From the NCBI RefSeq assembly GCF_032854445.1, contig NC_088295.1:4526501-4590500 (forward strand): a stretch of DNA of 64,000 bases. The letters run 5' to 3'. Of this stretch, positions 26,501 to 29,500 are shown piece after piece. The notes beneath the pieces were generated by a model. It searched no databases, had not been told where the DNA came from, and worked only from the letters and a program-made list of their open reading frames with translations. Within the stretch, counting starts at the first letter, position 1. Each line of letters begins with the position of its first letter. Source of the stretch: Liolophura sinensis. Its lineage: Eukaryota; Mollusca; Polyplacophora; Chitonida; Chitonidae. Made by a program: the position numbers and the translations under genes.

Positions 26501-29500
26501 AAAGCAATCAGAGACTGCAAAAAATTATGCCCCTCCCACCCCTTCCCCTGGCAGGAGCCCATGAAAAGTAACAATAAACAAACATTAAAAAAAAAAAATT
26601 AGAAAGGCAGCAGAAGAGAACAGCATGAGTGTTCTCCAACCCAGATGTGATATACAGATACACATTCACCAGTTCAAATCATTTTCCACACATTAAGGAG
26701 AGTTCAAGAATCCTACATATTAAACTTGGACACAACACAGTTCACTTATCAATCTGTCACATGTGGTTGGTTAGTTGCTTGAGTACCTAGCAGTATTTCA
26801 GCTAATATGACAGCAGCTAGTGAATTAGTCAGAGGAAGCCTGACAGAGCCTGGAGTGAACAAACACTTCTCGGCAACCTTCACAGGTTTACCCATTCAAA
26901 GTCAGGGAGAATGCTGCGTGAGCTGGGTTCTAGCCTTGACTTCTTTGGTGGGATACTACTGCAATGGCCAGCTGAGTCTTAGACAACTTAGCCACAGAGG
27001 ATCCTGGGAAAACGTGAGAATTCCATATGTACATGTATGACATCATATCCAAGATACACATACAGTCTGCCATATCGGCAAGAGCAGGCAACTACTCCAA
27101 AAATCAAAATGTAAAAAAGTACTCTGACAATGCATTACTTCAGGTTACCTACAGATCTATGACAACCTGGTGTACAGACTCACCTTGTACAGGTTGAAGG
27201 TGACCTCTGTATCATCCTGGATAGAGAAGCTGTGTTCTGACTTGTACAGCTAATACAAATCTATGACAACCTGGTGTACAGACTCACCTTGTACAGGTTG
27301 AAGGTGACTTCTGTATCATCCTGGATAGAGAAGCTGTGTTCTGACTTGTACAGCTAATACAAATCTATGACAACCTGGTGTACAGACTCACCTTGTACAG
27401 GTTGAAGGCGACCTCAGTATCACCCTGGATAGAGAAGCTGTGTTCTGACTTGTACAGCTAATACAGATCCATGCCTACCTGGTGTACAGACTCACCTTGT
27501 ACAGGTTGAAGGTGACCTCTGTATCATCCTGGATAGAGAAGCTGTGTTCTGACTTGTACAGCTAATACAAATCTATGACAACCTGGTGTACAGACTCACC
27601 TTGTGCAGGTTGAAGGTGACCTCTGTATCATCCTGGATAGAGAAGCTGTGTTCTGACTTGTACAGCTAATACAAATCTATGACAACCTGGTGTACAGACT
27701 CACCTTGTACAGGTTGAAGGTGACTTCTGTATCATCCTGGATAGAGAAGCTGTGTTCTGACTTGTACAGCTAATACAGATCCATGGCTACCTGGTGTACA
27801 GACTCACCTTGTACAGGTTGAAGGTGACCTCTGTATCACACTGGATAGAGAAGCTGTGTTCTGACTTGTACAGCTAATACAGATCCATGCCTACCTGGTG
27901 TACAGACTCACCTTGTACAGGTTGAAGGTGACCTCTGCATCATCCCGGATAGAGAAGCTGTGTTCTGACTTGTACAGCTAATAGAGATCCATGCCTACCT
28001 GGTGTACAGACTCACCTTGTACAGGTTGAAGGTGACCTCTGTATCATCCTGGATAGAGAAGCTGTGTTCTGACTTGTACAGCTAATACAAATCTATGACA
28101 ACCTGGTGTACAGACTCACCTTGTACAGGTTGAAGGTGACCTCTGTATCATCCTGGATAGAGAAGCTGTGTTCTGACTTGTACAGCTAATACAAATCTAT
28201 GACAACCTGGTGTACAGACTCACCTTGTACAGGTTGAAGGTGACTTCTGTATCATCCTGGATAGAGAAGCTGTGTTCTGACTTGTACAGCTAATACAGAT
28301 CCATGGCTACCTGGTGTACAGACTCACCTTGTACAGGTTGAAGGTGACCTCTGTATCACACTGGATAGAGAAGCTGTGTTCTGACTTGTACAGCTAATAC
28401 AGATCCATGGCTACCTGGTGTACAGACTCACCTTGTACAGGTTGAAGGTGACCTCTGTATCATCCTGGATAGAGAAGCTGTGTTCTGACTTGTACAGCTA
28501 ATACAGATCCATGGCTACCTGGTGTACAGACTCGCCTTGTACAGGTTGAAGGTGACCTCTGTATCACCCTGGATAGAGAAGCTGTGTTCTGACTTGTACA
28601 GCTAATACAGATCCATGCCTACCTGGTGTACAGACTCACCTTGTACAGGTTGAAGGTGACTTCTGTATCACCCTGGATAGAGAAGCTGTGTTCTGACTTG
28701 TACAGCTAATAGAGATCCATGCCTACCTGGTGTACAGACTCACCTTGTACAGGTTGAAGGTGACCTCTGTATCATCCTGGATAGAGAAGCTGTGTTCTGA
28801 CTTGTACAGCTAATACAAATCTATGACAACCTGGTGTACAGACTCACCTTGTACAGGTTGAAGGTGACTTCTGTATCACCCTGGATAGAGAAGCTGTGTT
28901 CTGACTTGTACAGCTAATAGAGATCCATGCCTACCTGGTGTACAGACTCACCTTGTACAGGTTGAAGGTGACCTCTGTATCATCCTGGATAGAGAAGCTG
29001 TGTTCTGACTTGTACAGCTAATACAGATCCATGGCTACCTGGTGTACAGACTCACCTTGTACAGGTTGAAGGTGACCTCTGTATCATCCTGGATAGAGAA
29101 GCTGTGTTCTGACTTGTACAGTTCATACAGATCCTCCAGCTCCTTGGGGCATGCTATCACATTATCTATTTACAAAGACAGAACAAATGACATTTAGTAG
29201 ATTTTATCATGTCTAATTAGGTCTTGGGTCCAGTGATCTCCTGCAAACTGTTTCATTACAGCTTAATTGTCTATGAAGACTTTCAGGTGGAACCTACCAC
29301 ATTAACAAACTTCTTTTCACTTTAATTTGTGTTATTTTTTTGAGAGAAATCAAGTCAGGCCACCATTTATGATGGCAATTACACACAAAACCATGAATAC
29401 TAACCCTGAAGTAAGGAATCATCTGGCTTAAGGTAGGACAGGGACTGAACTAGGGCAGTTATGAGTCTGTCAAAGGAGTTTGAGATCCCAAATAATAATA

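What the first reader, a model, noticed from the sequence alone, without database searches (positions are those of the whole stretch)
27150..29165. Exon 15 of KIF19 reiterated as 18 mini-exon cassettes at an exact 104-bp period
Seen directly: from 27,184 to 28,952 the last 66 nt of exon 15 and its GTGAGT donor recur every 104 bp with no indel in 18 copies, ending at the authentic exon at 29,056. Each cassette is 22 codons, open and phase 0-0, so any number could be spliced in without shifting the frame. Upstream, the exon's GATCTGTATGAA is GATCTGTATTAG in the repeats, which creates an AG exactly at the start of the 22-codon block and also an in-frame stop if the block is read through. Several copies carry amino-acid changes (e.g. 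Asp to Gly or Cys, Tyr to His) and one donor is GC. Inference: this could be a tunable cassette array adding a variable number of 22-residue repeats to the KIF19 tail, or a large set of decoy splice sites. The missing polypyrimidine tract argues for weak or no acceptor use.
Basis: partly seen in the sequence, partly recalled or inferred. Interest (0 to 1): 0.9.

Follow-up and report, generated by a model that had tools for sequence, protein, structure and literature searches.

The report
Splice-donor minisatellite in chiton KIF19
In a chiton's KIF19 gene, the end of one exon and its splice signal recur 18 more times in the next intron as a 104-base repeat, an array that likely arose by copying slippage and is likely spliced out unused, of a kind described before in amphioxus.

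Summary
In detail: 18 copies of a 104-bp unit, no indel, each carrying the last 66 nt of a KIF19 exon and its donor, follow the authentic exon at 29,056. The gene is KIF19 of the chiton Liolophura sinensis: an annotated protein of that species matches the window at 100% over all 453 residues. Two other exons, at 44,475 and 30,211, have donor-spanning arrays of their own. The best explanation is a minisatellite that spans an exon-intron boundary, the kind called "mirages" in amphioxus, where published data suggest normal splicing (passages). Against a coding cassette: inter-cassette introns of 38 nt, a substitution pattern like chance (2 synonymous, 6 nonsynonymous), no sign of a repeat at this exon in 120 relatives. 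For it: the cassette AG scores within the range of the gene's real acceptors, so inclusion is not excluded. RNA was not testable here. The main value: 18 decoy donors, one with a local context identical to the authentic one over 104 nt, make a natural test of how exons are recognised.

The parts
29056..29165 (-). authentic KIF19 coding exon 15 (exon M), 110 nt, phase 1 to 0, donor AAG|GTGAGT
   Evidence: 46 relatives aligned
27150..29055 (-). array: rest of unit 0 plus 18 copies of the 104-bp unit (66 nt exon-derived + 38 nt intron-derived; the last unit ends in the edge word), decoy donors at 28952, 28848 ... 27184
29126..29133 (-). GATCTGTA in the exon, exon-side edge of the repeat
   Evidence: 1976 = 19 x 104 bases from the other edge
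27150..27157 (-). GATCTGTA in the intron, intron-side edge of the repeat
28530..28538 (-). 9-mer of the one decoy donor that is GC (AAG|GCGAGT)
28394..28497 (-). copy 6: identical to the authentic unit over all 104 nt (-66 to +38 of the donor)
43420..44512 (-). second donor-spanning array, at exon 5 (exon C, donor 44475): 63-bp unit, 16 decoys (15 GAG|GTAATG, 1 GAG|GTAAGA)
29845..30211 (-). third donor-spanning array, degenerate, at exon 13 (exon K, donor 30211): about 40-bp unit, 7 decoys of the form AAG|GTNAG
25541..25704 (-). 82-bp unit, 2 copies, starting at the last 3 nt of exon 16 (exon N, proposed donor 25702); borderline case
   Evidence: the donor is one of two candidates, and the +/-16-nt test found no copy

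Best explanation
The array is a minisatellite that spans the end of KIF19 exon 15 and its 5' splice site, 18 copies of a 104-bp unit in a chiton, which likely arose by slippage or unequal exchange and is likely removed with intron 15. Shown: the copies, their donors, the gene, the species, and two more arrays of the same kind in the same gene. Inferred, origin: an 8-bp word, GATCTGTA, stands at both edges exactly 19 periods apart, as expected if a first tandem duplication formed between two short repeats, one in the exon and one in the intron, and then expanded and was homogenised by unequal exchange or conversion. Inferred, effect: the authentic donor is likely chosen because it is the only one that pairs with the acceptor of exon 15 across a short exon (110 nt; 214 nt or more for any decoy), and the copies go out with the intron without a function. 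Use of any decoy by exon extension would put in a stop at the 7th added codon. Not shown: any RNA.
For: Exact array and donors. Copies of the +/-16-nt junction window (6 mismatches or fewer) exist for donors 44475, 30211 and 29056: 3 of 17 donors tested, 0 of 16 acceptors tested, 56 of 2033 exon-internal positions, all of them within 66 nt of the exon 5 and exon 15 donors. At that threshold the copies number 1, 3 (all at the limit of 6 mismatches) and 18; units read by eye give more. Exon-derived and intron-derived columns are variable alike among copies 1-17, 8 of 66 and 6 of 38, p = 0.77; unique variants 2 synonymous, 6 nonsynonymous against 39 and 159 possible. Edge units differ from inner ones: exon 15 has TGAA and 18 of 18 copies TTAG; in the exon 5 array the first and last units keep a 68-nt form and the inner ones a 63-nt period, as reported for the amphioxus BflGb6 mirage and as typical of tandem repeats (passage). 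For amphioxus Adh3, TnC, globin and PGBD5 the papers say or suggest that mirages do not disturb splicing (passages).
Against: No transcript was seen, so normal splicing is by analogy with another phylum; and the globin paper itself notes that mirage signals could serve as cryptic splice sites and proposes that mirages make new introns (passage). Nucleotide diversity is lower in the exon-derived part (0.025) than in the intron-derived part (0.069), which could hint at constraint or conversion by the exon; the column count does not support this, and the counts are small. 17 of 18 decoy donors are perfect, while those of exon 5 have mostly drifted to GTAATG: this could be youth or selection. The cassette AG scores within the range of real acceptors. 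About half of 6000 sampled positions in the gene span have a copy by the same test, so donors are not shown to be a preferred target. Unit order shows no significant periodic block structure (1653 of 2000 shuffles reach it), so expansion in multi-unit blocks is not supported.
Confidence: 0.82

Rival explanations
1. Tunable cassette array: some 66-nt blocks would be spliced in through their TTAG acceptor and add 22-residue repeats to the KIF19 tail.
For: Phase 0-0, all 18 blocks open; AG kept in 18 of 18 and its score within the range of the real acceptors. The exon 5 blocks (36 nt, 12 codons) would also keep the frame (read).
Against: 38 nt between neighbouring cassettes is too short for a normal animal intron (general knowledge), so at most every other block could join. 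Fewer pyrimidines than most real acceptors. Substitutions like chance; the absence of stops says nothing, since only 11 of 198 single changes make one. No sign of a repeat at this exon in 120 relatives. In the exon 5 array the corresponding AG scores -7 to -13.
Confidence: 0.06
2. Regulatory decoys: the 18 donors would bind U1 and modulate exon 15 splicing, transcript yield through premature stops, or early polyadenylation, depending on copy number.
For: 17 of 18 decoys keep the perfect 9-mer; exon extension always meets a stop at the 7th codon.
Against: No clear sign of selection on the unit; the exon 5 array keeps mostly poorer donors. The amphioxus papers report or suggest no aberrant mRNA (passages).
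Confidence: 0.1
3. Assembly artefact: copy number or the array itself would be produced by the assembler.
For: Tandem repeats are hard to assemble (general knowledge); the published assembly has 14-fold HiFi coverage (passage). The exon at 46510-46621 reads one base out of frame, so local errors may exist.
Against: Copies differ in their own variants. Mean HiFi read length 8,347 bp exceeds the 2-kb array (passage). That this window comes from that very assembly is inferred.
Confidence: 0.02

Closest known systems
Amphioxus 'mirages' (Adh3, TnC, globins BflGb6 and BflGb9, PGBD5)
   Same: Tandem minisatellite-like copies of an exon-intron boundary with splice signals in many copies; in BflGb6 inner units homogenised, edge units different (passages read).
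   Different: Here a mollusc, 18 copies (6 and 3 in the two BflGb6 haplotypes), nearly all with a perfect donor, 104-bp unit, and three such arrays in one gene. Normal splicing is reported or suggested there and not tested here.
Intron gain by tandem duplication (AGGT model; potato RdRp case)
   Same: Tandem duplication across an exon boundary that brings ready splice signals (abstract read).
   Different: No sign that a copy became a used exon or intron here.
Ordinary intronic minisatellites of molluscs (27-bp unit in intron 3 of abalone TSSK1-like)
   Same: Mollusc, intronic, length-variable array (passages read).
   Different: That array is described as lying in an intron; this one includes the exon end.

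Membership tests
mirage (boundary-spanning minisatellite) | tandem units span an exon-intron boundary | tested here: met
mirage (boundary-spanning minisatellite) | many units carry GT or AG splice signals | tested here: met
   17 of 18 GT, 1 of 18 GC
mirage (boundary-spanning minisatellite) | inner units homogenised, edge units excluded | tested here: met
   TTAG in 18 of 18 copies, TGAA in the exon unit; exon 5 array, 68-nt edge units
mirage (boundary-spanning minisatellite) | regular splicing undisturbed | not testable with these tools
   no RNA data held
mirage (boundary-spanning minisatellite) | length instability between alleles or in soma | not testable with these tools
   one haplotype held; the genome search did not complete
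alternatively spliced tandem exon cassettes | each cassette has a usable acceptor | tested here: inconclusive
   score 2.34-4.47 against -0.23 to 10.73, matrix of 16 sites
alternatively spliced tandem exon cassettes | coding constraint on the cassettes | tested here: inconclusive
   2 synonymous, 6 nonsynonymous against 39 and 159 possible: no constraint seen, but only 8 variants; diversity 0.025 against 0.069 in the intron-derived part points the other way
alternatively spliced tandem exon cassettes | inclusion in mRNA | not testable with these tools
   no RNA data; no L. sinensis KIF19 protein found in the length ranges searched

The most novel reading that the evidence does not exclude
A length-variable splice switch: the array would offer 18 in-frame 22-codon cassettes that enter the KIF19 tail in numbers that vary between animals or cells, a protein ruler on a motor linked to cilium length (that link is recalled).
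Probability: 0.05. Interest if true: 0.88.

Novelty: new member of a known kind. Interest (0 to 1): 0.45.

Why it matters
If the reading is right, boundary-spanning minisatellites are not an amphioxus peculiarity but also occur in a mollusc, three times in one gene. The locus is also a natural experiment: copy 6 repeats the authentic donor with 66 nt upstream and 38 nt downstream identical, and copies 1, 3, 6, 10 and 15 (of the 17 full copies compared) are identical from -66 to +20. If only the real site is used, local sequence cannot be the reason, and pairing with the acceptor across the exon would be the likely one. Such arrays are also raw material for intron and exon gain.

Tried and rejected
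Amphioxus origin was my first guess from the literature. It was rejected: Branchiostoma KIF19 is 47% identical over aligned columns and groups with deuterostomes, and the window falls next to bivalves and gastropods; the retroelement protein then named L. sinensis. The tree alone did not place the window within molluscs: its sister row is Dimorphilus (an annelid, recalled), weakly supported (80/70), and both rows have long branches.

Unit order as higher-order repeats: rejected, 1653 of 2000 shuffles reach the best lag. Donor-versus-acceptor asymmetry: 3 of 17 against 0 of 16, too few to claim. Acceptor matrix: built from 16 sites only, so a rough yardstick. RNA families at the gathering threshold and tRNAs: none. 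Pfam on ten other open frames: reverse transcriptase and RNase H domains in one, an integrase core match under the curated cut-off in another, none in the other eight. A short-length protein search for an annotated KIF19 of this species gave one unnamed protein, P0241, which matches 23213-22608 at 87% and thus covers exon 17 and a little intron on both sides, probably genomic DNA of a related chiton.

Full report
Observation. On the minus strand a KIF19 exon ends at 29,056 with AAG|GTGAGT. Eighteen further copies of its last 66 nt and donor follow at an exact period of 104, with no indel, down to 27,184. Seventeen of the 18 decoys have the same donor 9-mer and one is GC. All 18 carry TATTAG where the exon has TATGAA. 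Reading on past the authentic exon meets a stop at the 7th codon, so any use of a decoy by exon extension would truncate the protein.

Gene and organism. Fifteen exons (B to P), with AG before each and GT after each but the last, join into a frame of 842 codons before the stop. The best relatives are KIF19 of bivalves and gastropods (58% identity for the first, best 120 of 7976 listed), and the best match among solved structures is labelled kinesin-like protein KIF19 (5gsz). With exon A, which is one base out of frame, and two further 5' exons found by homology the gene has 18 coding exons, and the finding's exon is number 15. The protein tree puts the window outside a clade of bivalves and gastropods and far from amphioxus. 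A reverse-transcriptase frame in the window finds an annotated protein of Liolophura sinensis, P0121; that protein maps to the window at 60378-60896 and 61155-61997 with 100% identity over all 453 residues. I take the window to be from this chiton (lineage). Its published assembly was first named L. japonica and then corrected (whole correction read; passages of the original); that the window is from this very assembly is inferred.

Not a single oddity. A 32-base window centred on each splice junction was compared with the whole minus strand (6 mismatches or fewer). Three of 17 donors have copies: exon 5 (44475; 1 copy at this threshold), exon 13 (30211; 3 copies, all at the limit) and exon 15 (29056; 18 copies). 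None of 16 acceptors tested has (the acceptor of exon 2 was not tested). Reading the units shows 16 decoys at exon 5 and 7 at exon 13. Of 2033 exon-internal positions 56 have copies, 9 in exon 5 and 47 in exon 15, within 66 nt of the donor. Of 6000 sampled positions in the gene span 49.6% have a copy: arrays fill the introns and spare the exons except at these ends, and donors are not shown to be a preferred target. Exon 16 has an 82-bp duplication that starts at its last 3 nt, a borderline case because its donor is one of two candidates and the junction test was negative.

Origin. The 8-bp word GATCTGTA stands at both edges of the exon 15 array, 1976 bases or 19 periods apart. This fits birth by slippage or exchange between two short direct repeats; it is inference, since a partial last unit would look the same. 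Edge units differ from inner ones in both large arrays: TGAA against TTAG here, 68-nt edge units against 63-nt inner units at exon 5. That is the pattern of concerted evolution described for the amphioxus BflGb6 mirage (passage).

Use. Among copies 1-17 the exon-derived block shows 8 variable columns of 66 and the intron-derived part 6 of 38 (p = 0.77); unique variants are 2 synonymous and 6 nonsynonymous, against 39 and 159 possible single changes. Diversity per site is nevertheless lower in the exon-derived part, 0.025 against 0.069, which I cannot separate from chance or conversion. An acceptor matrix from the gene's own 16 acceptors gives the cassette AG 2.34-4.47, the real ones (each left out in turn) -0.23 to 10.73 with median 5.18; 7 of 16 real ones score below 4.47, and 93 of 1809 other AGs in the gene span (cassettes included) reach it. 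The acceptor is thus weak but not absent. No second copy of the region shows in the 46 relatives aligned. In 120 of 120 relatives the exon was located and the best self-match from there onward scored 56 (median 30), where a perfect 22-residue repeat would score 115; over the whole tail the best was 74, near the C-terminus of P0024. Donor to next AG is 38 nt, too short for a normal animal intron by general knowledge.

Literature. Passages of PMC3087553 and PMC3902484 describe mirages in amphioxus and state or suggest that regular splicing goes on; the first also says that the signals could act as cryptic sites and proposes intron gain from mirages. The 2002 Adh paper itself is not held. Searches that were not limited to amphioxus (open-access library only) showed no report outside amphioxus; one search gave only an abalone paper (passages), and one search also listed a pine paper that I did not open.

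Verdict. A new member of a known kind in a new phylum, likely without function, with value as a natural test of donor choice. Steps shown: anatomy, gene, species match, sister arrays. Steps inferred: origin, removal with the intron, lack of function.

Noticed in passing
window 46510-46621 (-): KIF19 exon 3 reads one base out of frame part-way through, while exons B to P join into one open frame: a sequencing error, a variant or a damaged allele.
   Followed up: partly
window 43420-44512 (-): Donor-spanning array at exon 5 whose first and last units keep a 68-nt form and whose inner units have drifted to the donor GTAATG.
   Followed up: yes
window 36580-37822 (-): 44-bp array that ends 27 nt before the exon 6 acceptor; its unit carries a pyrimidine-rich stretch and CAG, perhaps a set of decoy acceptors.
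   Followed up: no
window 60378-61997 (+): Retroelement with reverse transcriptase and RNase H domains, annotated in NCBI as LOC135461855 of L. sinensis across two frames.
   Followed up: partly
protein collection: No KIF19 protein of L. sinensis turned up within the lengths searched, about 463-1473 and 144-456 aa, although another protein of this locus is there; perhaps the gene model was dropped.
   Followed up: partly
window 9208-11300 (-): 45-bp array, 46.6 copies, whose consensus unit holds ACAG|GTGAGT on the minus strand; no parent exon was identified.
   Followed up: no
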